Made by a program: the position numbers and the translations under genes
In this document: one piece after another, positions 19,713 to 40,405 of the stretch
Numbering within the stretch: the stretch's first letter is position 1
Layout: each line of letters opens with the position of its first letter
The notes under the pieces: model-generated
Database searches by the model: none
What the model saw: the letters and a program-made list of their open reading frames with translations, nothing else
Told to the model about the DNA's origin: nothing
From: Moniliophthora roreri
Lineage: Eukaryota; Basidiomycota; Agaricomycetes; Agaricales; Marasmiaceae
Length of the DNA stretch: 64,000 nucleotides
NCBI GenBank assembly: GCA_001466705.2
Contig: LATX02000181.1
Span: 558,001 to 622,000, forward strand
Reading direction: 5' to 3'

Positions 19713-22011
19713 GGTGTCGTTGAACGCGACCTGTATGCACAGGAATATTTGCGCAAACACAAGCACTTGGACGCTGAGATTCTGGAGAGACGATGTCTTT
19801 CACTTTCTCTTATATTTCACCCAATGGTGTTGTACATTGTGAGGTTTCTCTCGGCTAGGCATGGTTCCTATAGTATAGGAAGGCGTTATTCATCCACGCG
19901 ATCAGATCTTGGCGTCCTCACCTACCAGATGGATTAGTAATAGATAAAGTGATCGATGGCGTGTAGTAGAGGCTGTATTATTGAATCGCTTCGTCATGGC
20001 GAGTAAGCTCCTTTCGGGATAAATCGAGAATCGCTTACTTCATACGTAGCCCGGGGGGTTTTTGAGGCTGACTATCCACTGCCAATCCGAATAACTAGGA
20101 GTTAGGGAACGCCCGCCCGCCCTGTGCATATCCGGCCAAATGTTGTTCTCAAGAACGCGTTAACGCCTAGTAGAATTGTCCAAGGGAGCTGGAAGCACGG
20201 TCAAAAGTCTTGGAAGATGATATATTGAGAGCACATACCAATCAATGTTCATGGATAGCAAGATTATGCCCAGAGTGGGATAGAGTACGGAAGTGGTCTT
20301 GGTGAAGACCTTGGCTTTTCTTATCCGAAGATTGAGATGCCCGCTGATTATTTGAGGTGCATCGAAACACTGGCGATCCGCGCAATAAGGCATGTTAGAT
20401 GCGCATGTACAAGTTGAACGTAAATCAGCCGGAGCTCGAGCGAATGGTATGGCATGACCTTGTATCATTTCAGTCAGGTAAGGGACCGAACCGTGTGGTC
20501 GACTTACTTTGTCGCATGCTTCTTGTTGAATTCGTCGAGTAAAGTAATGGTAGCATTGTCGACACGTCATGTGGTCAACTCTAATCTACCGTATCAACAC
20601 GGAGATTTGGTCGTTCCACAGTGATAGTACGGAGCAAGTTTGATCAAGACCTAATCCTCATACGGGATTGCCGGCGTTGTAAAGACGCTGCTACCGCAGC
20701 ACCTGTAATTCCGTCTGGATTTATCAGTCAGCAATATAATACATCGAGATACGCAAGAACAAAGGTACCTTGAGTATTAAAAGTTGCATGTTGGAAGTTG
20801 TGATAATGGATGGTGCGGGGAAACTCGGTATCTCCGTGCCTGACCATGGTGCGACAGAGTGAGAGCGTGAAGGCATATCTACATCTTGTCAGCAATAATG
20901 GGCTATGGGCTGAACTCGCCTTTACAATTGAACCTCATCATCTCTCACAGGAAAATGACCATCTACCGTCACTCGCAATCCGAATCATCATCAAGTTTGT
21001 TACTTTCCATCGATAGGCCGTTGTCACCATCAACATTTATGATCAAGCTTCAAGATTCAAGTAGAAGAACAGGTTCGCCCCAGAGACATCACTTGAAGAT
21101 GGTGCACTGGCCTAACGGTTGTCATGCTTCAGTCGAGCTTGTTGGGTTCAAGCATCGTTGCCGATGTGACTCCACAATGGGATAGACAGGCCTCTGAGAA
21201 AAAGCATAGATATACGAGGTGTGAAGTACTTGAGCGTAGCAGGCTGTGACTAGACCTGTGACGACATAACGTGGTCTGTGACACAGCGCACAGGATGACA
21301 GGCTGATCGTTATCTTTGTCATCTGCGAGACTTCAATCCCAACGAGAATTACCTAGGCTGACGTCCCTGACCTGGGCTGACATGCACTGATGTTCGCTGA
21401 TGATGCTGCTACCAGTAGTTTTGACTGATTTTGGTCCATTGCATAGAAACAACAAAGGTGAGATCCAGTAAGAATTGAACAAGAACTGAGTCAAGTTGCC
21501 AAGATGCTTGTCATCATTGTACAATGTGATCTGTGTGAGCTGAGTTCACAAATACTGGTCCTCTGAAATCCAGCTGTTCCTTGGACCTTGCTTCCTCACT
21601 TCCCTTACGACTCACAGCCCACAATCCTATTCTTGTATCCCTTCTGTTTCCCATGTTCCTAGGTTTTGGACTCAGAATGTCAAGATATTCAATGAGATTA
21701 GATGTGTTGAGTTATTGAGAAGAGCTGGAGACAAGTCTCAGATGGTGTGTTGTGTACCTAATGAATGATGTTCCCATATTCACCTTATTTTTTCAAGGCT
21801 CATGATGCTCATTAGAGTTTGATACATGTCAAACTGGATTGTCTAATTGCATCTCAGTTCACACATGTACATCTCATAGCCTTAACCATGACATAATACC
21901 AGTCAGACTGGTCAGACATGCTCCCAAAACATAATTAAGCTTGGTATGTGTTATCCCACTGCTTTTGGCTCCAGAGACTAATATCAAAACCCACTGAGCA
22001 CAACAGAAAAA
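19713..22011. other. Intergenic stretch, turning AT-rich and CpG-poor from about 21420
   Basis: The fungalysin promoter would lie in the first few hundred bases. Frames at 20160-20570 (minus) and 20810-21185 (plus) are short, have no recognisable domain, and I do not call them genes. From about 21420 the base composition changes to the AT-rich, CpG-poor type that continues into the duplicated DUF6534 segment. Confidence 0.4.
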
Positions 22012-25000
22012 GTAGAAGCAGTAAGACATTGAAAAAGTGATATACAATAAAAGGGAAAAGGGCGAGGAGGGAAAATTCTTCTTTTTACTAGAGTAAGGAC
22101 TTACACATTATCAATGGATACAACTAATAGAACCATGTATCAAGAATAATAACAGAAAAAAGTAGAGCTTATTACACTGGACACAACCACCAGGGCAGTA
22201 GAACAGCACCTGCAATTTCTTACTCTGGACTCTGCCATATGTTGGTCTCATAGGTATGGATCCTGGGCTGCAAAGATTTAGAAGAGATGCAAAGGTGTTT
22301 GACAAGACCTTCAGAGAATGGCTGAAGGCTATAGACATAGCAAGAGAGGGATACAGATGATTTAAAGGTCTAGTAGAAGTATAATTTGAGTGTTTGATAA
22401 AGATTGGATCCTAATGCCATAAGGCTGAAAGGCATAGGTGCTGTCCTACTGCCCTAGTAGTTGTGTCCAGTGTTAGAAATGTAGAGAAAAAGTGTAATTC
22501 TATCTTACACAGAATATATGTAGGAATAAGCTATATTATAGTGAGATGATGATAGTACAAGAGAAAGAGAAAAGAATGTACATAAATAGATGTACAACCA
22601 GACATAAGGTGTGGCATATAGTAAATGCACATGGTAAGCTATATGTGGTATGCTTACAACAGACCATCTTGAGTCTGTGTTTAGAATTATCTACTATTAT
22701 TCTAAATTGACTTTCATATCTGACAACTCCTTTAATGACACCCATGAGCTTCAAAAAAGGTCCTATATAATACTTCACATACCATATCATTTTGTCTATA
22801 ATTATACAGATTTGACTGTCTTTCAACCAAAATTTGAATCTCAGGCTGTATAAGTTTTTAATAAGAGTGTATTAGTCTAGAATCTAGTATTTGTGTAGTA
22901 GCAAATCTTACCCTTGTGATACTTGCAGTATGAGTATCTGCAGTATATGTTGACCTAGTTGTATCCAAATTCCTGCCTGCTACAAAGCTGGTGCTTGAGG
23001 TATCAATTGTAGTAGGCAACATTGTCTGTCTATGGTATTGTCGTGAGTTAAGCCTAATGAAACCAGTTAATACAAGCTGAAGAATCACATTTAGAAACCT
23101 ACGTTGATAGAATTGAGTTGCTGTATACTGTAAAAGGCTCAAGGTCAATAGCACCAAGCTAAAAAGTAGTTAATAATACATACAGTTTCCAATGATTGTG
23201 AAAGTCCCAGTATATAGGAGATTCTTTTGTCTTGAAACCATCTGGAGAATGTGAACATGCTAGATATGTACCTATTTCACATGGAAATCACTGAAATATG
23301 ACATACCAGCATGAGAGAACAGATACCAGCAACACTATAGGCATCTCCAATAAAATTTATTGGCTGGTAAAATAATAAAAAGAAATACCTGGTCAATGCT
23401 CCATTGTTAATGGCATGGGCAATAAGCTTGTTGATAAGTGTGTCTGTACTAATAGCAAGCAGAACAAGAGTTAGAAATTGTATAAATTGATATCAGAGCC
23501 AGAAGTTACAAACCTTTTAATGCCTGAACGACCTCTATGCAGGTAGTATGAAATAGCTGAAGCACAGATAACATCCTCAGCAGCAGCAATTGTATGTGTG
23601 ACAATAGCCATTGTCTAGAGCCAATTTAAAACAAGTTAGATAAGGAATAAGACTGAAATATACCATGAATGTCTCATTCTCAAAATAAAGCATGTAAGAA
23701 TGCCTTTGACCTCTAGAAGTGTATTAGCATTTTTTTCAGCACCACAAGCTAGCAATGATTCATACCCTCCAACCATAACATCTGCATGATAGTAATTAGT
23801 CAGAATTTGCAGGAGCATTGTAAAAATACATACAAATAGAGGATGCTGCCCATTCCACCATTAGGATTAGAGTATAATCTTCTAGTGAAGCTGAGAACAC
23901 ATACCAAGTTGAACCATCTTCAGGAGACACTTAGAAGGTATCAGATATCAGTATAAGGAAATAGTATAACCAAACAAAGATTACACTTACCAATATAACA
24001 CATATCCACCAACCCTTTTTATTGCTGACTGTGAATACTTTAGTACTGCTAGTGTCAAAGTAGCCTTTATACTTACTTTTGTAAATTTGTGCTGTATAGA
24101 ATAAGTGCACAATAGTGTTCAGTGCATCCTATGACTATGCTTGAACTCTCAAGCACAACAAAGGTCCAATGAGATCTTACTGTTACAGCAATTAAACCCT
24201 TGAAAAGGCCTTTTAGTGAAAACAAAGCTGAAAATAATAATTCAAACTTACAATAACACTCCTAAGGAACAGCTAGTGATTAGCCCTGAACAATACAAAA
24301 GTAGAAGAACTGACCAGACAATATCCAATGAAGCAAGAGGATTGGCATAGTTTATGATCAAATAATAATATACTGCATGGATTGCCATAATCTCATGGAG
24401 TGTTTCAAGGATGCTAAAAGAAATGCAACAGTCAATTGAGATTTGATGCCAATGCAGAATCACAAACAGGATAGCCAGGACCTGAAGGGTCTTATCATCA
24501 GCAATGCCAACAAACAAGAGATACAGAAGACTTACAACACCTCGAAGCAACAATCGGTCATTGTAATGTCGAAAGAAGTACCATGTTTGAAGACAGGTGA
24601 CACCATATAGACTATGGAAGTAAAATGCACTGTTCAGAGTTTATGATGACTAAGGATAGGCGGGTACACACCATGATGATAGAATAATTGTCACCAGAAA
24701 AGAACCAAATGTACTTCCTGGGTCAGCGGTTATGGAAGATGTATCCATGTTCTGTAAACCTCTAACAGTCTCCAAGCCGCTAGTTTATATATGTATGACC
24801 GGCGACTAACCACATACACTTACTCCATTCTGATTTATATCCTCGGAGCTACTCAGATGGGACTATGATTCTAACATGCATCAAGTTCCATCATTTGGAA
24901 CATTCAAAGCGCGCCGGTCTGATGACAGTTACAAGTTCCAGTTATTTTGCGGGTGTCATGCCGTAAGGCTGCATGCGCGCTGAGGCTATACCGTAGTGTA

Positions 25001-26340
25001 CAGGTGAAGGGTATGGCGGGCAAGTATATGGTGTCTGACTCGGCCAACACTGCAAGTACCCCTTACCCTCATTTCTGACGGTGCTGGGCAGGTCTCCAGA
25101 AGGCCATGTTCTTGGGTGGTATTGGTGGCTGAAAACTAAGGTTACGGTATTAGCGGGTAAGGGTGCACCATCAATTTTTGAGCACCGTGATACACCCGTG
25201 TATAACTGGCTCCCGTGCTGATCGTGATCAACACGGGAAAGCTGGGGAATTTCGGCAAAGGCAACTTGTTCGGCCTGTCCCAGCGGCCCATCGATCGCAA
25301 CGATAAGAGGCGGCTCGCCCAGTTGTTGAGTACTCGGCAACTTGCGCAAAAGTGACGATTTTGGCGTATTTCCGACTGCAGAGTCTATCAAAGTTAGCTT
25401 CAGGTCCGTCCGTGGATGCACCAGCTGGGTTGGTTAAACGTTGAGGCCTGATAGTCAGGAAAAAGCGACAAGATGACAACACGCAAATGTGCTGTTGAAA
25501 GCAAAGAACCCCCGACACCTCGCGCGTTTAGGCGCTTTCAATTCCACGTGAATACAAGTGAGTTTAGAGTAGAATTGCGTAAGTGTTGGGCGGGCTCGGA
25601 CAGAAAACCGATGCGCAGGTTGCTGTGCGATGGTTTCACCTCCATCAAGATCTACGTTGACACATCACATCCTTTGGATATTGAGTAGGGTTGCCAAAAG
25701 TACCGTATTAAGATTACGGCGGTACGATTGTACGGTACTTGACATGTTAACAGTCTACGGGCGTACCTAGTGACAGCCGTTATACGGATTACGGGTGGCA
25801 AAATGTGATTTCTCTTGTATTCGTGTTAATAGGCTCTGATGCGATACAGGACCGGTGATGACAGAATCAAGTAGCCATGGGCGACGATGCAGTGGGTAAT
25901 GGAGGTGAGATTTATTCGAGTCGCATCTAAGAGCTTGACGGCATTAGTGGTAATTACTGCGAGAGAAAGTGAATCCGCACCTTTATTCAAAGCAACTTAG
26001 ATCACCAAGCAGCCTTGCGTGAAACCCCCCTTCTAATTCATTGACGGCGTGGACCTAGACTACCGCCCAAGATCGAACTACCTTTTATCGGACTTGTTAT
26101 GGGTGTCCTTGAAGTAATCTGGTGATGGAAGGTAAAGTGAATAGTTGAAACAGAAAGAAAATATGAAGGTTCCCATCGCCGAGAGTCAGAGTAGAAAACA
26201 TTGATCACGGTGGTCATGGCCTCGCGCGAGTCGGAGATATTTCCGACGTACATAACCGTCAACGGCTTTTCAAAACCTTCCTTCCCGACTGTCATCCGCC
26301 TGCTCATTTCGTCTGGTCTTATATGATGTATTCACACTCA
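22012..26340. repeat. Segmental duplication copy A (partner at 34531-38775)
   Basis: The sequence from about 22012 (gtagaagcagtaagacattg) to about 26340 (ttcacactcaacagtcaag) recurs in the same orientation at 34531-38775 with high identity by eye. It carries the DUF6534 gene at 22858-24748, a ~700-bp segment with protein-like but unrecognised minus-strand frames (24942-25421), and the ~450 bp ahead of the first CmcJ-like pseudogene. In the DUF6534 part most differences I sampled between the copies are C/T or G/A transitions. Copy B has small deletions relative to A (for example around 37690-37770). Confidence 0.85.
22858..24748 (-). CDS. DUF6534-family integral membrane protein, copy A (integrity uncertain)
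   Basis: Starts at ATG 24748 (MDTSSITADPGSTFGSFLV, ending in a TG|GT splice). Following exons show the layout of this mushroom-specific seven-TM-like family: YGVTCLQTWYFFRHYN, LETLHEIMAIHAVYYYLI with NYANPLASLDIVWSVL, VFTVSNKKGWWICVIL, EDVICASAISYYLHRGRSGI, TDTLINKLIAHAINNGALT, and a C-terminal Ser/Thr-rich tail after GFIRLNSRQYHR. The function of the family is unknown; it is predicted to lie in a membrane. I could not settle every intron phase, notably around 24430-24550 and 23840-23990, so the gene may be damaged. It lies in CpG-depleted DNA and has a close copy at 35393-37260. Confidence 0.6.
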
Positions 26341-27515
26341 ACAGTCAAGCCCGAAATGTCTTCCCAAGTTCTTGATCTGCCAGTCGGCATCAGGCATGCT
26401 GGTTATGAAGCAAAAATTCGTCTCATTATAGCTTTGTTGCTGCAAAAGGAGCCAAGCTTGCACTGAAATGGGCCTGTCTAGCTGAAGCAGAGAAAACATG
26501 AGCAGATGGAACTGCCTGTCGAGGTGAGCAAGAACTTGATTCGTCATACACTTGATTAATTGACTATGTCTTGTCATTTTGCTAGGTTCTTCCTTGACGG
26601 ATTCCCTAATCTGTCATAACCCTCTTCAGATATGCATCCTCGCACTTTTAGTTTTTGCTGTGGTCAGAGGAATGTTTTGGTATCGAGATCGGCAACCCCC
26701 AAATTTGACCTGGAAAACCTTGTCGAACACGCGTATCTCCCATACCTCGAACCCTTCTAGCCATCAAGTTAGCTTAGGGATTCATGATGAAGCCTCCTCT
26801 GGTCGTCGACATCCACTGGAACGTCTATGAAGGAGTTTCGGAAGTCAAAAGACATGTAATGGTGTGCAACGCTCTTTTCTCGCCCGACCCAATCTGATAT
26901 CAATCTAAAAAAAGGCTTCATCAGTTGGAACACCTAAGAATTGCTGTTTGAACTACTTCTCTTCGGCTCTCTTTAGCTGTCCGTTACCACAGCGGAGGCG
27001 ACAATGGCTTTTCATGCTCCGAAAAACGTGGACCTGCTTCATTGGCTCACGTCGACCAAACTCCCCTCACGAAGATGATGCCGCCGAGCACTTCTCCCGA
27101 ACTATCAACCTCTGGCGTCCCGTCTCGCATCCAGCGCTAGACTGACCGCTTACGATATGCGATTACTGTTTAGCTAACCGGAAAGAGGATGTGGTACCGG
27201 TGGATTTGATGTACCTGATAGAGCGGAGGAGACATTTGGTGTCGAGTATAACCCTGAACACAGTTGCGAGGGATCATGCTGGAGGTCATCTTGATCAAGC
27301 GGTTCGTTACTTGGTCTATTTCATGGGTATCGGAGCTGACACGGCTGAATCGTAGCTATGATTCTTTCGAAGACGGAAGTGTTGCGGTGCTTACACCTCA
27401 TACCACTTTCGAAAATACAACTACTTCCGAGGGAAGCCCTTTCAGAGAGTCCATTGAGCTCAGAGCTCTTGTCGTCCCAGTCCTCGATATGCAGCAGGAG
27501 AGATACTGCTAGTAT
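26341..27515 (+). pseudogene. CmcJ/AsaB-like hydroxylase/desaturase pseudogene, copy 1
   Basis: Plus-strand segments match the fungal CmcJ/AsaB (GA4-desaturase-like) oxygenase family in order: the GPASLAHVDQTPLTK region (~27040), INLWRPVSHPALD (~27100-27140), KEDVVPVDL (~27185), and near the end DGSVAVLTPHTTFEN and RESIELRALVVPV (~27375-27480). The frame changes after the HVDQT segment and again after VPVDL, and the INLWRP frame ends in TAG/TGA, so it cannot give a full product. Related copies are at 31722-32975 and 38776-40045. These enzymes are tailoring oxygenases or desaturases in secondary metabolism; the family call rests on motif patterns. Confidence 0.6.
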
Positions 27516-28525
27516 ATCTCTCAGTGTCGACTACCTATCCTTCAAGTTCCCGGAGGCACTGCTCGCGCCAAAGTCCCAAAGACAACGTGGAAAGGCAGCT
27601 GAACCGAAGCGAGGAGGTGGGATAGAGTCGTTTAGGAGTGGTGGAGTCAAGATGCCGGAGGAAGGGGACGAAGAATGTGATGGCATCTCTGGTGGTTGTT
27701 TTGGCGGAAGCGCCGCGACACGTTCGGGAAAGCTGATGAAATGGAACGAGTTCAAGTGGATTTTGTTCATTGTGAATGCTTTGGTGTGTCTATTGCCTCT
27801 TTTGACGACACGTTATTTATCGAGTTATGTTCGCAGCTAAGCATGTACTCCCTCACCGCACTCGTATTCTGCCTCCTCACCTAGTTTAACGTCTGGGTCC
27901 AAGCATACATCATCCGTGTCGGGAATCGTCCAGAACTCGTCGCGTCCACTACTGCTGCCTCTGCCGGGATTGGGGTCTTCTCTTTGGCTTGTACCTGCTT
28001 CGCGTGGCTCCTGTGTGGCCTCTTGACAAGCCAGCATGAACCATTTCGATCGAATGCCATTGGGGCGTGGAATGCCGAAATCACTCAAGGGAATAACTAG
28101 AGCAGTTCGTGTATTGGAAGAAAAAACATAAGGCTAGGGCTAGATTTATACTACAGACATGTTTAAGAATATAGAAAGGACACGCGCAAACACGGAGTTC
28201 TCTTGGTGTCTAGAATACAAGGCAGAAATGAGATAAGCGAAATTGGAGCATCCGAGACGCCTTGGCGCTGGAAGCTGCGCGGCAAACCCTGTCATTTACA
28301 TCTATCAAACGACTGCTCAACCGTGTGACAAGACATTTGTTGATTGCTTCTACTTACAAGGATGACGCCGCCCTATGTCAAGGGTGCCTATTCGTTAGCT
28401 TCGTAGGCGCTCTTCAGACGAAACTTACCTAGGCTCTTCACGTCGCTTCGATTCATTTCCATCAACCTGCAAATACGACCATCAATTTGTTGGTTAAGAA
28501 ACTCTTATTTGCTTGAAGCGTACAT

Positions 28526-29173
28526 TTATGAAGCATCCTATCGTGATGAATGTCTGTTCGTCAGCACGGCATGGGCACAGGGGCAAAACCAACTGACCTC
28601 TGCACGACGACCCCAGATAAATTCGTCAGTCTATACAACGCGTTCAGTTATGGAACAGTGCTCTTGTCTGAGTCGAACGTACTTCGATCAAGTTGCTGTC
28701 CTGCAGCAATATTAACATGTCAGCCACGCATGCGCTATACCATGGATGTAAAACCAACTGACTTCTGCACGACGGCCCCAGATAAATTCGTCAGTCTATG
28801 CAACTCGTTCAGTTATGGGACAATGCTCTTGTTTGAGTCGAACGTACTTCGATCAACTTGCCGTCCTGCAATAATATTAGCTCGTCAGCCACGCATGCAC
28901 TATACATGGATGTAAAATTAACTGACCTCTGCACGACGGCCCCAGATGAGTTCGTCAGTCTATACAACTCACTTAGCTATGGAACGGCATTCTTGTTTGA
29001 GTCGAACGTACGTCGATCAACTTGCCGTCCTGCAATAATATTAGCTTGTCAGTCGCGCACGCGCTACACATGGATGAGATTAGACGTACATGTGGCGGAA
29101 GATCGGATACATCTACAGGACTGCCGAACACGAGTGTTATGGCCGCGAGAATGACAGTAGTTTTGAGGTTCAT
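28526..29173 (-). CDS. Repeat-containing secreted RiPP precursor (dikaritin/UstA-like)
   Basis: Eight exons, all in phase 0: 29090-29173 (signal peptide; MNLKTTVILAAITLVFGS), then alternating 18-nt exons (29012-29029, 28848-28865, 28683-28700) and 33-nt exons (28927-28959, 28763-28795, 28598-28630), and a last exon at 28526-28537 ending in TAA. The 18-nt exons read DGKLID, DGKLIE and DSNLIE. The 33-nt exons read TDELIWGRRAE once and TDEFIWGRRAE twice. So three 17-residue repeats follow a signal peptide, each with a conserved Trp-Gly directly before Arg-Arg, a typical Kex2 site. This is the layout of UstA/PhomA-type precursors, and a UstYa gene lies divergently 1.4 kb away. An alternative 3' end uses exons 28429-28466 and 28378-28387. 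Expression and product are unknown; some dikaritins are mycotoxins, but nothing here shows toxicity. Confidence 0.75.
28598..29029 (-). repeat. Three tandem ~165-bp units carrying exon-intron-exon-intron
   Basis: Equivalent exon borders recur every 164-165 bp (28959, 28795, 28630). Each unit holds an 18-nt exon, a 52-nt intron, a 33-nt exon and a 60-62-nt intron. Unit 1 (28927-29029) and unit 2 (28763-28865) are most alike; unit 3 (28598-28700) carries changes in the 18-nt exon. A fourth, decayed unit can be traced at about 28460-28590, where the 18-nt exon has become Asp-Ala-Ser-stop. Confidence 0.85.
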
Positions 29174-30583
29174 TATCTTTATGAGGGTACTTGGGATCTA
29201 TTCGGATTCGCGCGCCATTTAAATACGTTCAGAATACATCGCTGTGGCGACATTTGTTTGAATTGTACCATACTTGCTACCGTGCCAATCGCTTGAGGTT
29301 TGTCAGCAACGGGTATCAGGTGGATGGATTTCGATGGACCGTCACCTAAATAGGGCCAGCACTTGTCCTGGTTCAGTCACAGGTTAAATAATGAAAGTGA
29401 AAAGAAGGCATACCATCGACATTAAACCATAATTGGAAGGTCATTTTGACGAGGTGGAACGCGACTGAAATGTTTTTTTCCAAAAGGATTATCCAGGGAA
29501 AACAATAGACTAGAGATGAAATAGAGATGTACGAGCTGTAGGGTTGCCCATCCCTGTCTTGATGGTCTTTGGAAGAGTGCCGCGTCTGGGCGCCTGATTC
29601 TCTCCTCAACTATCACTATCCACCAAACACAAGGGGTCTCACAACAGTCAGACAGTCTCATGTACACGTATTTGTGCGTAATGCAAACTAAAAATTTGAG
29701 GTGGGTTTGCCCCGGGGGGGGAAGAGATAGAGAGCAGAAAGTTGAGTGCGCGGTGCGTCAATAGTGCATTCTGATGAAATACACTGGATAACCTACTCAC
29801 AACTTCGGCCACTCGGTGGTTTTGAGGGCACACAGGGCTTGTGACGTTCGTCTCGAAGGCAATTGACGCAGAAGCTCGATACGCTCGAATGATGGTCACT
29901 CACGAAAGAGCTCGGGAAGAAAATCACAGCTGCTCAACTCAGATCTCTCATCACGGCTTCCCATGTTCCTACGCGCTTCATACGTCCCCCAGATCAGAGG
30001 TGGGAACTTCAATTCAGCAGTCAGACAGGAGTTTCTCAGACTCGTCTGTATCTGAGATGACCCGATAGACTGGATGTTTCCACCAGAGCATTCCTGTCTC
30101 CGCTGGCGAATATACTGCGACCAATGCTTTCCTAGCTTCTCGGACGCATGACAAAGGAATATGCTTCAGAGAGAGATAAGGATTACTCGAAACTTGTACG
30201 TTAAACCTGGGACATTAATAGTTATAATTTATCTTCTACGGGACTTTTTTCGCATCTCGGACTCTTGGTCAGCTCTTGCGCATTTTCAACTTCACCAGGA
30301 CACATGCTCGCCGTAGAAGGCCGGTTACAGGCCTACACCACCAGGGGTACATGCTGCCTTCAATCCTGGCGCAACGAGGGCGTGTTACGTATCAAGCTGT
30401 CTGTTCGGATCTGAGGAATGATAAACCTGGCTCGTATTTACGAAATGTGGGGTAGAATTCCTACTTATCTTGTGGCAGCACTAGCTATACTAACTATAAT
30501 CGGTAGTCAATTGTTGGTGTGCACATTAACCCAGACAGACCACGCACAAGTCTTTGCTCCTGCCCCCGTCATTACTGCCATTC
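29174..30583. promoter_or_regulatory. Divergent intergenic region between the RiPP precursor and UstYa genes
   Basis: 1.4 kb between the two start codons. The frames inside it (for example 29648-29899 minus and 29841-30068 plus) show no domain. It must hold both promoters, so shared control is plausible, but I see no palindromic site I would name. A hydrophobic frame at 30418-30603 is discussed under rejected items. Confidence 0.4.
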
Positions 30584-31590
30584 ATGGCTCAAGAAGCGTA
30601 TAAATCAGAAGATTACACTCCTCTCCTACAAAACGAACCAGACGTGGAGCTCAAGCCAACGATCTCTCGAGACCGTTACTCTCGAGTCAAGAACGTAATC
30701 ATCGTTATCCAGTTCATTGTTATTGCCTCGATGCTTTTGCTGGCATCGACTACTTCCCAATGCAAGAAGAGTTCACCTCTGCTTTACTGTGAGTTCATGT
30801 CGACGGTATTGCATTCGACAAATGTGCTTACCAGACCCACAATTCGGCTCAGCACCAGTGAATCACCTTCTTGAGGAGAAGATAGTCACGTTTCGCAACG
30901 CTATCGGTAATGACACCACGAAATACATGGGGGATCCATCTCCAGAATTGGATAAGGCATGGGATGACCTGTATGGATGTAAGTCAGCGTTGACTATGCT
31001 TGCTTGCTCGAGAACTCTTCTTACACGGTAAACAGTTGGGATTAACAAGATCTCGAAGGATGATGCAGACCAGCTCCCTGTCAAGACGGTCCGAATTCCG
31101 AGCGATCCCGACCATTATGTGGTTGCACTAGATGTGTATCATCAGCTGCACTGCCTGGTGAGTCTTCCTGTACGCAAGTGATCGACAATAACTCGACAGC
31201 CAACGATTTATTCAAAGAACCTGATTCGAAAGGCGTTTTATTGGGACTATTATCACAAGCTGCACCCTGGACCTGTGATCAATTCCAGCATAAGTGAAGA
31301 AGAGCATGTCCCTCACTGCATCGAGCATCTTCGACAGAGTATCGTTTGCGCATCAGGTCAGACAGCTTGAATTGCTGCGCATTGCTAGGGTGCTGATATT
31401 ACCTGTTATAGACGTCAGCGCTATCGTATGGTACTGGGATGTGGAAAAAAACAAGACCATAAGCCGTCCAGCTGTTCCTCATACGTGCAAAAATTTCGAC
31501 AAGATCAGCGAGTGGGCGAACCAGCCGGAAAATCGGATTTATTGGAATGAATTTGACTTGTATGTGAAGCCTCCCAGTGACGATGAGTAG
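30584..31590 (+). CDS. UstYa-family (DUF3328) oxidase, RiPP macrocyclase candidate
   Basis: Five exons join in frame to 262 aa: 30584-30788, 30835-30978, 31036-31157, 31218-31356 and 31412-31590. Residues 1-35 are a polar cytosolic tail, followed by one TM segment (NVIIVIQFIVIASMLLLAS, ~40-58) and a luminal domain. The two family signatures are present: HQLHCL (~152-157, ending exon 3) and HCIEHLRQ (~190-197) with Cys further on. The length matches UstYa proteins (~230-270 aa). Known members oxidatively cyclise dikaritin precursor peptides (ustiloxin, phomopsin, asperipin) in the secretory pathway. The divergent neighbour at 28526-29173 is a fitting substrate. No break was seen. The family assignment is strong; the reaction here is inference. 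Confidence 0.9.
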
Positions 31591-31721
31591 ATAGTTGGGA
31601 TAGAAAGGAAATATAAAGTTTTCATCTCCGAGAGTGCAAAGTAGAGAACATTGGCCATGGCGGCTCGTGGGAGACTTCGGGATCTTTCTTCTCGACTGCT
31701 ATCCGCCTGTTCGCTTCGTCT

Positions 31722-32975
31722 CGTCTGATGTATTCCTACTTGAACAGCCAAATCCAACTTTCAAATGTCTTTCCAAGATCTTGATCTGCAAGTCGACGAC
31801 AGCCGTGCTTACTGCGAAGCAAAATTCCATCTCATTATACTTTGCCTGCCGCAGGAGATAAAGAGGGGCAAGGCTCGCGTTGTGGGTCTGTGTAACTGAG
31901 CAGAGAGAACGGGAGCAGATGGGACTGCCCGTCGAGGTGAGCAAAAACTTGATTCATCATACACTTGATTTAAGTATTGACTACTTCTTGTCATTTTGCA
32001 AGGTTCTTCCTTCACGAATTCCCTACTTTGTCATATATCCATCCATTCTCGCACCAAAAATTTTGGCTGGGATCAGAGGAACGTTTCGGTATTATCAAGA
32101 TAGACATCCCTAAAATTTGACCTGGAAAATCTTGTCGAACACGCGTATCTCATGCGTGGGCACCTCACATGGCCTCGAACCTCCTCCAGCCTATAAAAAT
32201 AGCTTAGGGACCCATGGTGAGGCTTCCTCTGGTCGTCAATATCTGCTGGAACGTCTATAAAGTGGTTTCTGAAGTCAAAAGACACGTGATGGTATGCAAT
32301 GCTCTTTTCTCGCTCGGCCCAAGCTGATATTAATCTAAAAGAAAGGCTTCATCAGTCGGAATATCTAAGGAATACGTCTCTTCGGCTCCCTTTAGCTGTT
32401 CGCCACCACCGCGAAGGTGACAATGGCTGTTCATACTCCAAAAAGCGCGGACCTGCTTCGTTGGCTCACGTCGACCAAACTCCCCTCACGAAGACGAAGC
32501 ACGAAGACGAAGCCGCCGAGCGCTTGAAGCACCTCTCCCAAATCGGCAACCTCTGTTGTTCCATCTCGCATTCTGCGTTAGACTGACCTCTTGTGGTGTA
32601 CGGTTATTGTTCAGTTAACCCGAAAGAGGATGTGGTACCGGTGGATTTGGCGTACCCTGATAGAGCGAAGGAGACATTTGGTGTCGAGTATAATCCTGAG
32701 CACAAATTGAAGTATTCGCGAGGGATTACGCGATTACGCCGGAGGACATCTTGATCAAGTGGTTCGTTGTTTGTTCCATTTTGTAATTATCGGGGCTGAC
32801 ACGGCTGAATCGTAGCTATGATTCTATCGAAGACGGAAGTGTTGCGGTGCTTACACCTCATACCGCTTTTGAAAATACAACTGCTTCCGAAGGAAGCCCT
32901 TTCAGGGAGTCCATTGAGCTCAGAGCTCTTGTTGTCCCAGTCCTCGATATGCAGCAGGAGAGATACTGCTAGTAT
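31722..32975 (+). pseudogene. CmcJ/AsaB-like hydroxylase/desaturase pseudogene, copy 2 (directly downstream of UstYa)
   Basis: Same family as the copy at 26341-27515. Segments in order: RHHREGDN then KKRGPASLAHVDQTPLTK (~32410-32490), RLKHLSQIGNL with ISHSALD and a stop (~32525-32583), NPKEDVVPVDLAYPDRAKET and FGVEYNPEHK (~32617-32705), then DSIEDGSVAVLTPHTAFEN and RESIELRALVVPV (~32822-32940). The frame changes and stops between segments exclude a full-length product. Similarity to copies 1 and 3 ends near 33075. It begins 130 bp after the UstYa stop in the same orientation, consistent with a former cluster member. Confidence 0.65.
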
Positions 32976-33092
32976 ATACTCTAGTGTCAACTACCTGACC
33001 TCCAAGTTCTCGGAGGCACTAATCGCACCAAACTCTCAAAGACAACGTGGAAAGGCAGCTGAACCGAAGCGAGGACGCCGGAGGCACTTGTG

Positions 33093-34530
33093 ATGCATAT
33101 AGAGCGGGTTTGTAAGGGATGTCGTAGTCAGAATTGCTGTATATATAGTTATATTACATTTACTTTTAATACTTGGATGTACGCCTGTAGATTGCAATAT
33201 ACACAGTCTTCCTTATATTGTTTAGATATGTTACAAATCTGAGGCTGAGGCTGAGGCAATTACTAGTGTTATCTTTGGTAAAAATGACCCTAAACCATGC
33301 ATTACCCCCTTTACCCAGCATTACCGGTAATGGGTAGTTACAAGTTTGGATTTATCTGGATTCGTTCTTTATCCATTTTTCACTTGGGGGGATTTTTGGC
33401 CATCATGGAATTTTCTCCCATGAAAGTGAACATGATTCAATATATTCACTCTAGAATGAAATTCACCCATGTACATCTCATTTCATGGTAACCCTACTTA
33501 CATAAATGGCTATTTACGAGTCTGAGCTTACGAGGATTCGTCTTCTTCAGCCGGTTTTTTCCTTATATGGAAGGTATAAGATGGGTGGGAAAGTTGTGGT
33601 TCGATAGATGTCGATAGATCCTTTTGTTTGGTTCGTTCCGTCATCTGTCATCGCGTCGATTAGCTACAATGCCTGGACGCCAGAAAACGGACTTGTACTT
33701 GCCATCGGACCCTGATGGCCCACTGCGGCAAGTCTACATAGACATCAGTATGAGCAGTGGTAAATTTCTCAGTTTTTTATTCTTTCAACTTGAAAGAGAA
33801 ATATATGCTGCACCTTATTAATGTCATGTTCAGTTTCATAGGGAATTTTTCCATCACCTCACTTGGCTCAAAAAAAGTACAAGTTTTGCCTCATGGAAAC
33901 TTTTTCCATCAATTGCAGTAGCTCTTTCTCATCAGAGGCAACCACATATTCAACACTGACCTCAATGTAACATTATTGAATTTGACTACATGGAGACAAG
34001 ATTATAAGGCCTGCTTCACTCTGTATGCAGCAGAAAGTGAGACTTGAGTGAATATTAGCTGCACCTACTAATACATCCACATGTTTCATTGCACCCAGTA
34101 ACATCAGATCCACTCCATACTTTGCTGGCAGCAAATTTACTGGAGAGAATGATAAAGAAAAACCAGACTTATTCCCATCAGTGGCTCACAGTGACCCACT
34201 CCTGGCAAGTTATGACTCCACTAACTGGTCAATCACTTAGGTAACTTGTCATGATTTTCATTACAGGGAATAACATCACCAATCAGTTGTACAGGCAGTA
34301 ACTTATTATACCCTACTCATCATGAAATCCCTTAACTTATTATGATTTCATATTACCAGTCACCTCAAACTTAGAGGTTGCATCAAATCAGTGAGGAGTT
34401 GTAGCCAATAATAGAGGTTAAAACCACCCCTCCACCCTCTGTTATTGAACCTCTATTACCTGGCATTGTCCTGTTGTGGGGTGTCCTTGTGGGTGTTGGG
34501 GGTTATACTGACTTGACATTTTGTGTGATA
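33093..34530. other. Non-coding stretch; CpG-poor and AT-rich from about 33770
   Basis: No recognisable gene. A short frame starting at ATG 33669 (MPGRQKTDLYLPSDPDGP) looks protein-like for about 30 codons and stops making sense near 33765, where the composition shifts to AT-rich DNA almost without CpG. It could be the 5' end of a gene cut off by that segment. A triple GAGGCT run lies at 33241-33257. Confidence 0.4.
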
Positions 34531-37500
34531 GTAGAAGCAGTAAGACATTGAAAAGGTGATATACAATAAAAGGGAAAAGGGCGAGGAGGAAAAATTCTTC
34601 TTTTTCCTGGAGTAACTAATAGAATTATGTATCAAGAATAATAACAGGAAAAAGTATAGCTTATCACACTGGACACAACCACTGGGGCAGTAGAACAGCA
34701 CCTGCAATTTCTTACTCTAAACTCTGCCACATGTTGGCCTTATAGGTATGGATCCTGGGCTGCAAAGATTTAGAAGAGATGCAAAGCTGTTTGACAAGAC
34801 CTTTAGAGAATGGCTGAAGGCTATAGACATGGCAAGAGAGGGATACAGATGATTTAAAGATCTAGTAAGAGCATATTTTAAGTTCTTAATAAATATTGGA
34901 TGCTAATGCCATAAGGCTGAAAGGCATAGGTGCTGTTCTATTGTCTTTATGGCAGTTGGCATGCTACTGCCCTGGTAGTGTCCAGTATTAGGAACATAGA
35001 GAAAAAGTGTAATTCTATCTTACACAGAATATATGTAGGAACAAGCTATATTATAGTGAGATGATAATGGCTCAAGAGAAAGAGAAAAGAATGTATATAA
35101 ATAGGTGTACAACCACACATAAGGTGTGGCATGTAGGAAATACACATAGTAAGCTATATGCAGTATGCTTACAACAGACTATTTTGAGTCTGTGCTAGAA
35201 TTATCTACTATTATGCTAGGTTGACTTTCATATCTGACAACTCCTTTAATGACACCTATAAGCTTCAAAGAAGGTCCTATAGAATACCTCACATACCATA
35301 TCATTTTGTCTATAATGATACAGATTTGACTGTCTTTCAACCAAAATTTGAATCTCAGGCTGTATAAAATTTTAATAATAGTGTATTAGCCTCTAATCTT
35401 GTATTTGTATAATAGCAAACCTTACCCTTGTCATATTTGTAGTGTGAGTATCTGCAGTATATGTTGACCTAGTTGTATCCAAATTCCTGCCTGCTACAAA
35501 GCTGGAACTTGAGGTATCAACTGTAGTAGGCAACATTATCTGTTTATGGTATTGTCGTGAGTTAAGCCTAATGAAACCAGTTAATACAAGCTGAAGAATT
35601 ACATTTAGAAACCTACGTTGATAGAATTGAGTTGCTGTACACTGTAAAAGTCTCAAGGTCAATAGCATCAAGCCAAAAAGTAGTTAATAATACATACATT
35701 TTCCAACAATTGTGAAAGTCCCAGTATATAGGAGATTATTTTGCCTTGAAACCATCTGGAAAATGTGAACATGCTGAATATATACTTATTTTACATGGAA
35801 ATCACTGAAATATAACATACCAGGATGAGAGGACAGATACCAACTACACTATTGGCATCTTCAATGAAACTTATTGGCTGGTAAAATAAGAAAACAAAAT
35901 ACCTAGTCAATGCTCCATTGTTAATGGCATGGACAATAAGCTTGTTGATAAGTGTGTCTGTACTAGTAGCAAGCAGAACAAGAGTTAGAAATTGTATAAA
36001 TCAATATCAGAGCCAGAAGTTACAAACCTTTTGATGCCTGAACGACCTTTATGCAGGTAATATGAAATAGCTGAAGCACAGATAACATCCTCAGCAGCAG
36101 CAATTGTATGTGTGATGACAGCCATTGTCTAGAGCCAATTTGAAATAAGTTAGATAAGGAATAAGACTAAAATATACCATTAATGTCTCATTCTCAAAAT
36201 ATAGCATGTAAGAATGCATTTGAACTCTAGAAGTGTATTAGTATTTTTTTCAGCACCACAAGCTAGCAATGATTTATACCCTCCAACCATGATATCTGTG
36301 TAGTAGTAATTAGTCAGAATTTGCAGGAGCATTGTAAAAATACATACAAATAGAGGATGCTACCCATTCCACCACTAGGATTAGAGTAAAATCCTAGTGA
36401 AGCTGAGAACACATACCAAGTTGAACCATCTTCAGGAGACACTTAGAAGGTATCAGGTATCAGTATAAGAAATTAGTAAAATCAGACAGAGATTACACTT
36501 ACCAATATGACACATATCCACCAACCCTTTTTATTGCTGACTGTGAATACTTTAGTACTGCTAGTGTGAAAGTAGCTTTTATACTTACTTTTGTAAATTT
36601 GTGCTGTATAAAATAAGTGCACAATTGTGTTCAGTGCATCCTATGACTATGCTTGAACTCTCAAGCACAACAAAGGTCCAATGAGATCTTACTGTTACAG
36701 CAATTAAACCCTTGAAAAGGCCTTTCAGTGAAAACAAAGCCAAAAATAATAGTTCAAACTTACAATAATACTCCTAAGGAACAGCTAGTGATTATCCTTG
36801 AACAATATAAAAGTAGAAGAACTGACCAGACAATATCCAATGAAGCAAGGGGATTGGCATAGTTTGTAATTAAATGATAATATACTGCATGGATTGCCAT
36901 AATCTCATGGAGTGTTTCAAGGATGCTAAAAGAAATGCAACAGTCAATTGAGATTTGATGCCAATGCAGAATCACAAACAGGATAGCCAGTACCTGAAGG
37001 GTCTTATCATCAGCAATGCCAACAAACAAGAGATACATAAGACTTACAACACCTCGAAGCAACAATCGGTCATTGTAATGTCGAAAGAAGTACCATGTTT
37101 GAAGACAGGTGACACCATACAGACTATGGAAGTAAAATGCACTGTTCAGAGTTTATGATGACTAAGGATAGGCGGGTACACACCATGATGATAGGATAAT
37201 TGTCACCAGAAAAGAACCAAATGTACTTCCTGGGTCAACAGTTATGGAAGATGTATCCATGTTCTGTAAACCTCTAACAGTCTCCAAGCCGCTAGTTTAT
37301 ATATGTATGACCGGCGACTAACCACATACACTTATTCCATTCTCTGATCTATATCCTCGGAGCTACTCAGATGGGGTTATGATTCTAACAATATGCATCA
37401 AGTTCCAGTTATTTTGCGGGTGTCATGCCGTATTGTTACATGCGCACTGAGGCTATAACCGTAGTGTAGAGGTGAAGGGTATGGTGGGGAAGTGTATGGT

Positions 37501-38775
37501 GTCTGACTTGGCCAGCAGTGTAAGTACCCCTTACCTTCATTTCTGACGGTGCTGGACAGGTCTCCAGAAGGCCATGTTCTTGGGTGGTATTGGTGGCTGA
37601 AAACTGAGGTTACGGTATTAGCGGGTAAGAGTACAGCGTTGATTTTTGAGCACACCCATGTGCAACCTTTAGCTGGGTCTCGCCCACCGCAGAGGGATAA
37701 CCTCCCGTGTTGATCACGATCAACACTGGAGAGCTGGGGAATTTCGGCAAAGGTGACTTGTTCGGCCTGGGTTGGTTAAACGTTGAGGCCTGATAGTCAG
37801 GAAGGGGCGACAAGATGACAACACGCAAATGTGCTGTTGAAAGCGAAGAACCCCCGACACCTTGTGCGTCTAGGCGCTTTCAATTCCACGTGAATACAAG
37901 TGAGTTTAGAGTAGAATTGCGTAAGTGTTGGGCGGGCTCGGACGATAAATAAACAGAAAACCGACGCGCGCGTTGCCGTGCGATGGTTTCACCTCCATCA
38001 AGATCTATCGTAGACACATCACATCCTTTGGGTACACCGCTGGCAGGATATCGTACGATGGAGGTACGCCAGGAACGATCCGATGATGGACTTCATCCCA
38101 TTGTGTCCCCCATCGTATGTAGTCCCAGAGCCCTTCAGGAAGTCTTTTCTGTGTTTTGGCGCTGAATATGATACAGGACAGTTCTCCTAAACGTCGTTTT
38201 TCATGAGTAGTGACGGCCGTATACGGATTACGGGTGAGCAAAATGTGATTTCTCTTGTATTCGTATTAGTAGGCTCTGATGAAACACAGGACCGGTGATG
38301 ACAGGATCAAGTAACCATGGACGACGATGCAGTGGGTAATGTAGGTGAGATTTACTCGAATCGCATCTATTAGCTTGACAGCATTAGTTGCAATTACTGC
38401 GAAAGAAAGTGAATCTGCACCTTAGATCACCAAGCAGCCTTGCGTGAAACCCCCCTTCTAATTCATTGACGGCGTGGACCTAGACTACAGTCCAAGATCG
38501 AACTACCTTTTATCGGACTTGTTATGTGTGTCCTTGAAGTAATCTGGTGATAGAAGGTAAAGTGAATGATTGAAACAGAAAGAAAATATGAAGGTTCCCA
38601 TCGCCGAGAGTCAGTAGAAAACATTGATCACGGTGGTCATGACCTCGCGCGAGTCGGAGATATTTCCGGCGTACATAACCGTAACAGCACCCTTTTCAAA
38701 ACCTTCCTTCCCGACTGTCATCCACCTGCTCATTTCGTCTGGTCTTATATGATGTATTCACACTCAACAGTCAAG
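34531..38775. repeat. Segmental duplication copy B (partner at 22012-26340)
   Basis: Same order as copy A: CpG-poor flank, DUF6534 gene (35393-37260, minus), the 24.9-25.7-kb-type segment (37400-38030), and the segment ahead of the CmcJ-like copies (38280-38770). At about 38775 the similarity to copy A ends abruptly inside caacagtcaagc and continues as sequence resembling 31722 onward. The junction therefore joins two different source segments. Confidence 0.85.
35393..37260 (-). CDS. DUF6534-family integral membrane protein, copy B (integrity uncertain)
   Basis: Near-identical duplicate of the gene at 22858-24748, with start ATG at 37260 and the same segment order: YGVTCLQTWYFFRHYN, LETLHEIMAIHAVYYHLI, VFTVSNKKGWWICVIL, EDVICASAISYYLHKGRSGI and GFIRLNSRQYHK, with a Ser/Thr-rich tail. 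Exon borders appear conserved with copy A, and the same region of uncertain splice phase exists (36930-37060), so both may share the same defect or the same introns I misread. The difference from copy A is mostly scattered transitions. No function is known for the family. Confidence 0.6.
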
Positions 38776-40045
38776 CTCATCTGATGTATTCCTACTTGAA
38801 CAGCCAAATCCAACTTTCAAATGTCTTTCCAAGATCTTGATCTGCAAGTCGACGACAGGCGTGCTTACTGCGAAGCAAAATTCCATCTCATTATACTTTG
38901 CCTGCCGCAGGAGATAAAGAGGGGCAAGGCTCGCGTTGTTGGTTTGTGTAACTGAGCAGAGAGAACGAGAGCAGATGGGACTGCCCGTCGAGGTGAGCAA
39001 AAACTTGATTCATTATACACTTGGTTTAAGTATTGACTACTTCTTGTCATTTTGCAAGGTTCTTCCTTCACGAATTCCGTACTTTGTCATATATCCATCC
39101 ATTCTCGCACCAAAAATTTTGGCTGGGATCAGAGGAACGTTTCGGTATTATCAAGATAGACATCCCTAAAATTTGACCTGGAAAATCTTGTCGAACACGC
39201 GTATCTCATGCGTGGGCACCTCACATGGCCTCGATCCTCCTCCAGCCTATAAAAATAGCTTAGGGACCCATGATGAGGCTTCCTCTGGTCGTCAATATCT
39301 GCTGGAATGTCTATAAAGTGGTTTCTGAAGTCAAAAGACACGTGATGGTATGCAATGCTCTTTTCTCGCTCGGCCCAAGCTGATATTAATCTAAAAGAAA
39401 GGCTTCATCAGTCGGAATATCTGAGGAATACGTCTCTTCGGCTCCCTTTAGCTGTTCGCCACCACCGCGAAGGTGACAATGGCTTTTCATACTCCAAAAA
39501 ACGCGGACCTGCTTCGTTGGCTCACGTCGACCAAACTCCCCTCACGAAGACGAAGAACGAAGACGAAGCCGCCGAGCGCTTGAAGCACCTCTCCCAAATC
39601 GGCAACCTCTGTTGTTCCATCTCGCATTCTGCGTTAGACTGACCTCTTGTGGTGTGCGGTTATTGTTCAGTTAACCCGAAAGAGGATGTGGTACCAGTGG
39701 ATTTGGCGTACGCTGATAGAGCGAAGGAGACATTTGGTGTCGAGTATAATCCTGAGCACAAATGGAAGTATTCGCGAGGGATTACGCGATTACGCCGGAG
39801 GACATCTTGATCAAGTGGTTCGTTGTTTGTTCCATTTTGTAATTATCGGGGCTGACACGGCTGAATCGTAGCTATGATTCTATCGAAGACGGAAGTGTTG
39901 CGGTGCTTACACCTCATACTGCTTTCGAAAATCCAACTGCTTCCGAAGGAAGCCCTTTCAGGGAGTCCATTGAGCTCAGAGCTCTTGTTGTCCCAGTCCT
40001 TGATAATGCAGCAGGAGAGATATTGCTAGTATATCTCTCAGTGTC
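38776..40045 (+). pseudogene. CmcJ/AsaB-like hydroxylase/desaturase pseudogene, copy 3
   Basis: Very close to copy 2 in its first part (38776-39870) with the same segments: RHHREGDN, KKRGPASLAHVDQTPLTK, EDVVPVDLAYADRAKETFG, and DSIEDGSVAVLTPHTAFENP with RESIELRALVVPV near 39885-39995. Beyond about 40000 it continues with sequence like copy 1 (27500-27840), whereas copy 2 is cut short, so copy 3 is a mosaic or the more complete ancestor. It has the same kind of stops and frame changes and is not expected to give an enzyme. Confidence 0.65.
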
Positions 40046-40405
40046 AATTACCTATCCCCCAAGTTCCCGGAGGCACTGCTCGCACCAAACTCTCAGAGAT
40101 AACGTGAAAAGACAGCTGAATCGAAGTGAGGAGGTGGGACAGAGTCGTTTAAGAGTGGTAAAGCGAGGATGCCAGAGGAAGGGGACGAAGACTGATGGCG
40201 TCTCTAGTATTTGTTCTGGCGGAAGCACCGCGAAATTGCCGTGAAAGCACGCTTAGGAAAGCCAACGAAATGGAACAAGCTCAAGCGGATTTTGTTCATC
40301 ATGAACACTTTGGTGTGTCCATTGCCTCTCTTGACGACGTATTATTTATCAAGTTATGTTCACAGCTAACCATGTACTCCCTTGTGCGGCCTCTTGACAA
40401 GCAGT

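What the first reader, a model, noticed from the sequence alone, without database searches (positions are those of the whole stretch)
28526..31590. Candidate new dikaritin-type cyclic RiPP cluster in a basidiomycete
Seen: a minus-strand gene with a signal peptide and three 17-residue repeats ending in IWG-RR-AE, and, divergent to it, a 262-aa protein with one TM segment plus HQLHCL and HCIEHLRQ. Known: UstYa (DUF3328) proteins with these motifs cyclise peptides cut from secreted, Kex2-processed, repeat-containing precursors (ustiloxin, phomopsin, asperipin). Inference: this pair is such a system with an unfamiliar core, F/L-I-W-G preceded by an acidic TDE. The conserved Trp and the Phe (two of three repeats) are candidate cross-link sites. 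I know of no described product with this core.
Basis: partly seen in the sequence, partly recalled or inferred. Interest (0 to 1): 0.93.

Follow-up and report, generated by a model that had tools for sequence, protein, structure and literature searches.

The report
Hidden repeat-peptide gene beside ring-forming enzyme
In the cacao-pod fungus Moniliophthora roreri, a predicted gene with no match in a search of 5.8 billion proteins carries, in very small exons, a repeated tryptophan peptide that is predicted to be secreted, cut apart and likely closed into a ring by the UstYa-family enzyme encoded head-to-head with it, and four other UstYa loci in the same genome carry comparable predicted repeat-peptide genes.

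Summary
P1 (minus strand, 29173-28526) is an 82-aa precursor model in 8 exons; each of three 17-residue repeats lies on an 18-nt plus a 33-nt phase-0 exon. The divergent gene is UstYa (PF11807, E 2.6e-45); its annotated length is 256 aa (exact match to WG66_005458, M. roreri), not 262. A word-seeded search of 5.8 billion proteins found no relative of P1. In the same genome 5 of 11 UstYa loci have a predicted Kex2-type repeat precursor nearby, all head-to-head: four tryptophan type built from small phase-0 exons, one tyrosine type. Paralogues P2 and P3 lie about 33 kb away without UstYa. L036 repeats show in-frame purifying selection. Among 16 modelled Trp-type repeats Trp is near the end in 16; Phe occurs in 10, Tyr in none. 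So: a Trp-type variant of the ustiloxin/dikaritin kind. Secretion, Kex2 cutting and UstYa cyclisation are inferred. The small exons may explain why annotation-based surveys miss it. No transcript, product or second-species pair could be tested.

The parts
29090..29173 (-). P1 exon 1: signal-like N-terminus MNLKTTVILAAITLVFGSPVDVSDLPPH
   Evidence: hydrophobic uncharged 11-residue stretch, KD mean 2.75
29012..29029 (-). P1 exon 2, 18 nt, spacer DGKLID of repeat 1
28927..28959 (-). P1 exon 3, 33 nt, core TDELIWGRRAE of repeat 1
28848..28865 (-). P1 exon 4, 18 nt, spacer DGKLIE of repeat 2
28763..28795 (-). P1 exon 5, 33 nt, core TDEFIWGRRAE of repeat 2
28683..28700 (-). P1 exon 6, 18 nt, spacer DSNLIE of repeat 3
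28598..28630 (-). P1 exon 7, 33 nt, core TDEFIWGRRAE of repeat 3
28526..28537 (-). P1 exon 8, DAS and stop
28416..28525 (-). stretch downstream of the P1 stop, similar in DNA to part of paralogue P2 that carries further repeats; taken as a remnant
   Evidence: blastn of L031 against the window
29174..30583 (.). 1410-bp shared divergent intergenic region; parts (to 30193, and 30312-30456) are similar to the region upstream of P2
30584..30788 (+). UstYa exon 1, includes the hydrophobic (likely transmembrane) segment
   Evidence: exact match to P0001
30853..30978 (+). UstYa exon 2
31036..31157 (+). UstYa exon 3, HQLHC motif
31218..31356 (+). UstYa exon 4, HCIEHLRQ motif
31412..31590 (+). UstYa exon 5 and stop

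Best explanation
A predicted eight-exon gene (P1) and the UstYa gene head-to-head with it most likely form a small pathway in which a secreted precursor would be cut by Kex2 after each RR and its tryptophan-bearing peptides would be oxidatively modified, probably cross-linked into a ring at the Trp, by UstYa. Shown by sequence: the repeats, the open exon chain with its splice signals, the dibasic sites, a Trp near each of them, the UstYa motifs, and head-to-head pairing of UstYa with a predicted repeat precursor at five loci. Inferred: splicing in vivo, entry into the ER, Kex2 and Kex1 trimming to about AEDGKLIETDEFIWG, and UstYa acting on the peptide. The bond is unknown; because P1 repeats have one Trp, no Tyr and no fixed Phe, I commit to the Trp side chain as one end of the link. 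The P1 repeats probably spread by tandem duplication of an exon-intron unit of about 164 bp, giving small exons that gene finders may overlook.
For: P1 splices cleanly with seven phase-0 introns. PF11807 2.6e-45. In the alignment of 10 UstYa relatives (two of them partial) H146, H149, C150, H184, C185, R190 and Q191 are invariant. Of 11 UstYa loci (my grouping of the 23 exon-level matches), 5 have a repeat precursor in the stretch read: window, L036, L041, L043 (scanner) and L038 (open-frame repeats with AAYVYTDNERR); all 5 lie head-to-head with UstYa (positions; the UstYa starts of L038 and L041 are read by eye). The scanner reached 2 or more in 0 of 300 simulated 10-kb sequences and 0 of 32 scans of 16 loci fetched by chance matches, in 0 of 28 reversed scans, and in 0 of 10 UstYa-free pieces of this contig other than L031, which holds P2. 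L036 repeats: pS 0.677 against pN 0.069 in frame (10 non-independent pairs), 0.062/0.217 and 0.093/0.169 in shifted frames; P2 cores pS 0.621, pN 0.301. Trp lies within the last six residues of 16 of 16 modelled Trp-type repeats, a dibasic site in 15 of 16. The window UstYa and the second UstYa of L036 are 76% and 66% identical over the two matched stretches, and both loci have Trp-type precursors.
Against: No transcript or product was seen. Six of 11 UstYa loci showed no precursor. P2 and P3 have no UstYa in the 30 kb read on their far side (L031, L032, L034); the only UstYa place on the contig is the one beside P1. P1 looks shortened relative to P2 and may be partly decayed. The 18-nt exons show no constraint, and the two-repeat genes L041 and L043 show no purifying signal (pS 0.100, pN 0.114 and 0.100); in L043 the introns (0.97) are even more alike than the exons (0.90). 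The scanner asks for W, Y, F or H close to a dibasic site, so an aromatic there is partly built in (that it is always Trp is not), and it was loosened once so that it recovered P1. No tyrosinase match on this contig (0 of 19) and no P450 match on it (0 of 115, but only 92 of 720 candidates were scored). No Tyr in the core, unlike ustiloxin, phomopsin and asperipin. In L043 the pair is about 3.1 kb apart with an unassigned 178-aa open frame between.
Confidence: 0.6

Rival explanations
1. P1 is a linear Kex2-processed signalling or pheromone-like peptide precursor, and UstYa is a neighbour without a role in it.
For: In the published survey only 103 of 1680 basidiomycete KEPs have a DUF3328 gene nearby (PMC7329392, passages). 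P2 and P3 lack UstYa in the sequence read.
Against: Five of 11 UstYa loci carry such precursors, all head-to-head. The Ste13 signature (X-A or X-P after the dibasic site; PMC6339444, passages) is not met: P1 has RR-AE.
Confidence: 0.2
2. P1 is a decaying or silent copy; the working precursor is P2 or another gene.
For: P1 ends early relative to P2 and has similar DNA beyond its stop. The pair lies between segmental duplications. Spacer exons are unconstrained.
Against: All splice signals, the signal-like exon and the three cores are intact, core exons carry mostly synonymous changes, and P1, not P2, adjoins UstYa.
Confidence: 0.14
3. The P1 repeats are a non-coding minisatellite that resembles small exons by chance.
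For: Tandem unit of about 164 bp; introns are also similar between units (0.79-0.90).
Against: Diverged paralogue P2 keeps the same phase-0 exons and W-G-R/K-R; other UstYa loci have the same kind of layout although a DNA search with P1 finds only P1 and P2; in-frame constraint in L036; 5 exact pattern hits in the genome, all here.
Confidence: 0.03

Closest known systems
Dikaritins / ust-RiPS (ustiloxin, phomopsin, asperipin-2a) with UstYa (DUF3328, PF11807)
   Same: Signal-like N-terminus, tandem repeats ending in dibasic Kex2 sites, adjacent UstYa-family gene.
   Different: Trp-centred core without Tyr; precursor in 18/33-nt phase-0 exons; basidiomycete; no tyrosinase match on the contig; no product known.
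Victorin and epichloecyclins
   Same: Kex2-type multicore precursors made into cyclic peptides; victorin is linked through Phe rather than Tyr (PMC9233826, passages).
   Different: Ascomycete; other cores.
Basidiomycete KEPs of the 2019 and 2020 surveys, including type P-3 with W accompanied by P and DUF3328 near some members
   Same: Kex2 repeats, some with Trp and a DUF3328 neighbour (PMC7329392, passages).
   Different: The 2020 survey used annotated proteins. In its main text Moniliophthora appears only in a type without DUF3328, and the genera listed for P-3 do not include it; supplements were not seen.
Amatoxin/phallotoxin MSDIN peptides (Trp-Cys link)
   Same: Basidiomycete RiPPs with a cross-linked Trp (PMC9233826, passages).
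   Different: Released by a prolyl oligopeptidase, not by Kex2; no UstYa (recalled); no Cys in P1 repeats.

Membership tests
dikaritin / ust-RiPS | ER signal peptide on the precursor | tested here: inconclusive
   Hydrophobic uncharged 11-residue stretch after an N-terminal K (KD mean 2.75); no signal-peptide predictor was available.
dikaritin / ust-RiPS | tandem core repeats separated by Kex2 dibasic sites | tested here: met
   3 repeats each ending RR-AE.
dikaritin / ust-RiPS | UstYa/DUF3328 gene adjacent | tested here: met
   PF11807 2.6e-45, 1410 bp between the starts, divergent.
dikaritin / ust-RiPS | Tyr in the core as in the characterised ustiloxin, phomopsin and asperipin products (typical, not shown to be obligatory) | tested here: not met
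   No Tyr in the 3 P1 repeats or in the other 13 modelled Trp-type repeats; survey: 65.6% of DUF3328-linked repeat sequences hold Tyr.
dikaritin / ust-RiPS | tyrosinase gene in the cluster (reported as needed for ustiloxins and phomopsins) | tested here: not met
   0 of 19 tyrosinase matches lie on C83.
dikaritin / ust-RiPS | side-chain cyclised product dependent on UstYa | not testable with these tools
   No chemistry available.
alpha-pheromone-type KEP | X-A or X-P dipeptides for Ste13 after the dibasic site | tested here: not met
   RR-AE in all three repeats; signature as given in PMC6339444.
UstYa family | curated Pfam score, HxxHC and HCxxHxRQ motifs, N-terminal hydrophobic segment (motifs recalled as typical) | tested here: met
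   155.4 bits against a cut-off of 25; motifs at 146 and 184, top 19-mer KD 2.58 at residue 38.

The most novel reading that the evidence does not exclude
Mushroom fungi hold a whole family of Trp-cross-linked UstYa peptides whose precursors are written one repeat per small exon and are therefore absent from protein databases; the reported scarcity of UstYa-linked precursors in Basidiomycota is largely an annotation artefact.
Probability: 0.35. Interest if true: 0.82.

Novelty: new variant of a known kind. Interest (0 to 1): 0.64.

Why it matters
The 2020 survey of 1461 fungal assemblies reports DUF3328 genes beside 30.1% of ascomycete but only 6.1% of basidiomycete KEPs, and asks whether the cyclisation factor differs in Basidiomycota or cyclisation hardly occurs there (PMC7329392, passages). 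That survey read annotated proteins. Here one basidiomycete genome has predicted precursors at 5 of 11 UstYa loci; the two that I searched for (P1 and the L036 precursor) gave no match in the protein collection. This gives a third, directly testable answer: the precursors are there, hidden in small exons. It also suggests a Trp-based side-chain chemistry for UstYa, and a simple way for multicore peptides to grow, by duplication of exon-intron units.

Tried and rejected
Protein searches with P1 (50 candidates) and the L036 precursor (7992 candidates scored) found nothing, so co-location in other species could not be tested by locus tags. Both searches need shared 5-residue words and lengths of 0.55-1.75 times the query, so a badly spliced or fused annotation could escape them. 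AlphaFold2 of UstYa gave mean pLDDT 55, too poor, so no fold search was run; the search of solved structures gave one chance match at E 0.92. One search is invalid (one N missing in my pattern) and was replaced. (first scanner) failed to find P1 and was loosened. (dibasic repeat comparison) is not used as statistics: reversed controls gave 42 hits and L033 is full of duplicated DNA. The tree uses rows pieced together from matches and has weak nodes (the one joining the window UstYa to L036b has 0.54), so no conclusion rests on it. Left out of the 16-repeat count: candidate exons of P2 outside the scanner's chain, P3, and the Tyr-type L038. Papers: PMC7329392, PMC6339444, PMC9233826 and PMC8893723 were seen as passages; others as listings only. 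That no relative is in print rests in open-licence papers; the lists of 28, 47 and 70 were cut to the best 20, 15 and 10.

Full report
What is there. The window is contig C83, 558001-622000, of a 59.4-Mb genome. Its UstYa protein equals, letter for letter, WG66_005458 of Moniliophthora roreri, whose contig has 794281 bases, the length of C83; so the organism is the agaric that causes frosty pod rot of cacao (disease recalled; taxonomy). P1 splices from 29173 to 28526 on the minus strand into 82 aa with eight exons, seven GT-AG introns and no internal stop. Each 17-residue repeat is one 18-nt and one 33-nt exon.

Is it coding? Summed over three pairs, the 33-nt exons differ by 6 synonymous and 2 non-synonymous changes (pS 0.277, pN 0.026), the 18-nt exons by 0 and 6, so the constraint lies on the core exon. 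The exon pattern has 5 exact genome hits, all on C83; with up to two mismatches there are 67 hits against 88 in the control, that is, chance. A word-seeded search of 5.8 billion proteins found no relative of P1.

Paralogues. DNA search finds P2 at C83:553188 onward, about 33 kb from P1. P2 has a closely similar first exon (MNLRTTIILAAITLVFGSPVDVGAHHQH; 66 of 84 bases equal) and the chain DGLIH/DDEIIWGRRAE, NDHIA/ADGSEWGRREE, DDIHEWGKRAE in phase-0 exons, with further candidate exons. A third start, MNLKTTFIFVAIMLCSAAFANPIDLLERSTSE, and an exon TNTQDWGRRST follow in tandem (P3). The ends of P2 and P3 are not modelled. P1 and P2 share upstream DNA (70% over 1366 columns, which include their first exons). 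The nearest frames with a Pfam match upstream of P2 are a Na+/H+ exchanger; no UstYa was found there. In the cores of P1 and P2 the Trp is fixed and the Phe is not.

Other UstYa loci. I grouped the 23 matches into 11 places and read 10 kb at each of the ten outside the window. A scanner for chains of phase-0 small exons with W, Y, F or H shortly before a dibasic site, loosened once so that it recovered P1, found three new precursors. L036: MRFSNLVPVLTLVVACAAAPTVDSIAAKRE followed by six repeats such as ADVDAADRITQWADDFKIWIKRD, one per exon of 45-75 nt. L041: two repeats (54 nt) ending AVDRFDWRAADWKRE. L043: two repeats (60 nt) such as PFFIDWKKDDKENSVAWKRG. L038 has an open-frame Tyr-type precursor with DVSLDGAAYVYTDNERR; its signal exon is read by eye. 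All five lie head-to-head with UstYa, with roughly 1410, 610, 450, 3150 and 850 bp between the starts for the window, L036, L041, L043 and L038 (the last three are approximate). L035, L037, L039, L040, L042 and L044 gave none. Controls: 0 of 300 simulated, 0 of 32 scans of 16 loci fetched by chance matches, 0 of 28 reversed scans and 0 of 10 UstYa-free pieces of this contig reached the score of 2; L031 did because of P2. L036 repeats show strong in-frame purifying selection with the opposite pattern in shifted frames; L041 and L043, with two repeats each, do not.

Mechanism. For ustiloxin, phomopsin and asperipin-2a the literature states that UstYa-family proteins are indispensable for cyclising the Kex2-released cores (PMC7329392, passages). 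By analogy P1 would enter the ER, be cut after RR, and its 15-residue peptides (about AEDGKLIETDEFIWG) would meet membrane-anchored UstYa. In 16 modelled Trp-type repeats (P1 3, P2 3, L036 6, L041 2, L043 2) Trp is in the last six residues of 16, a dibasic site in 15, Phe in 10, Tyr in none; some aromatic near the dibasic site is required by the scanner, its being Trp each time is not. I therefore place one end of the likely link at Trp. This is inference; the bond, its partner and even cyclisation rather than another oxidation are untested. No tyrosinase match lies on the contig; asperipin-2a is reported with a single DUF3328 gene, so one UstYa could be enough.

Known or new. In kind this is the ustiloxin/dikaritin architecture: repeats with Kex2 sites and an adjacent UstYa are met, the signal peptide is likely but untested by a predictor, Tyr and tyrosinase are not met but are typical rather than shown to be obligatory. 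New are the Trp-centred cores, the small-exon layout (18-75 nt) recurring at four UstYa loci of one genome, and the consequence that surveys of annotated proteins could miss such genes. I found no paper describing this in my searches, which cover open-licence papers only. Relatives of the UstYa itself occur in Paramarasmius and Marasmius; whether the precursor goes with them is the main open question.

Noticed in passing
L031:5194 onward and L031:6933 onward (C83:553194 and 554933 onward): Two further precursor-like genes P2 and P3 in tandem, relatives of P1, with no UstYa found beside them.
   Followed up: partly
L036:1888-2709 (-), L041:6074-6401 (+), L043:8604-9004 (+), L038:2073-2449 (-): Predicted Kex2-repeat precursors head-to-head with other UstYa genes; L038 is a Tyr-type repeat (AAYVYTDNERR). 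Only the L036 one was searched in the protein collection (no match).
   Followed up: partly
window 22011-27853 and 34530-40382; 31720-33075 and 38776-40132: Segmental direct duplications (about 80-91% in pieces, the last pair 97%) lie on both sides of the P1-UstYa pair.
   Followed up: partly
window 27258-27512, 32787-32972, 39843-40241 (+): Three copies of a frame with GSVAVLTPHT.FEN..ASEGSPFRESIELRALVV (one copy differs slightly), which I recall as like AsaB-type hydroxylases; Pfam gave no match for the third copy, the other two frames were not tested.
   Followed up: no
window 18376-18825 (-): Fungalysin metallopeptidase M36 piece (2.4e-46), a peptidase family, about 10 kb from P1.
   Followed up: no
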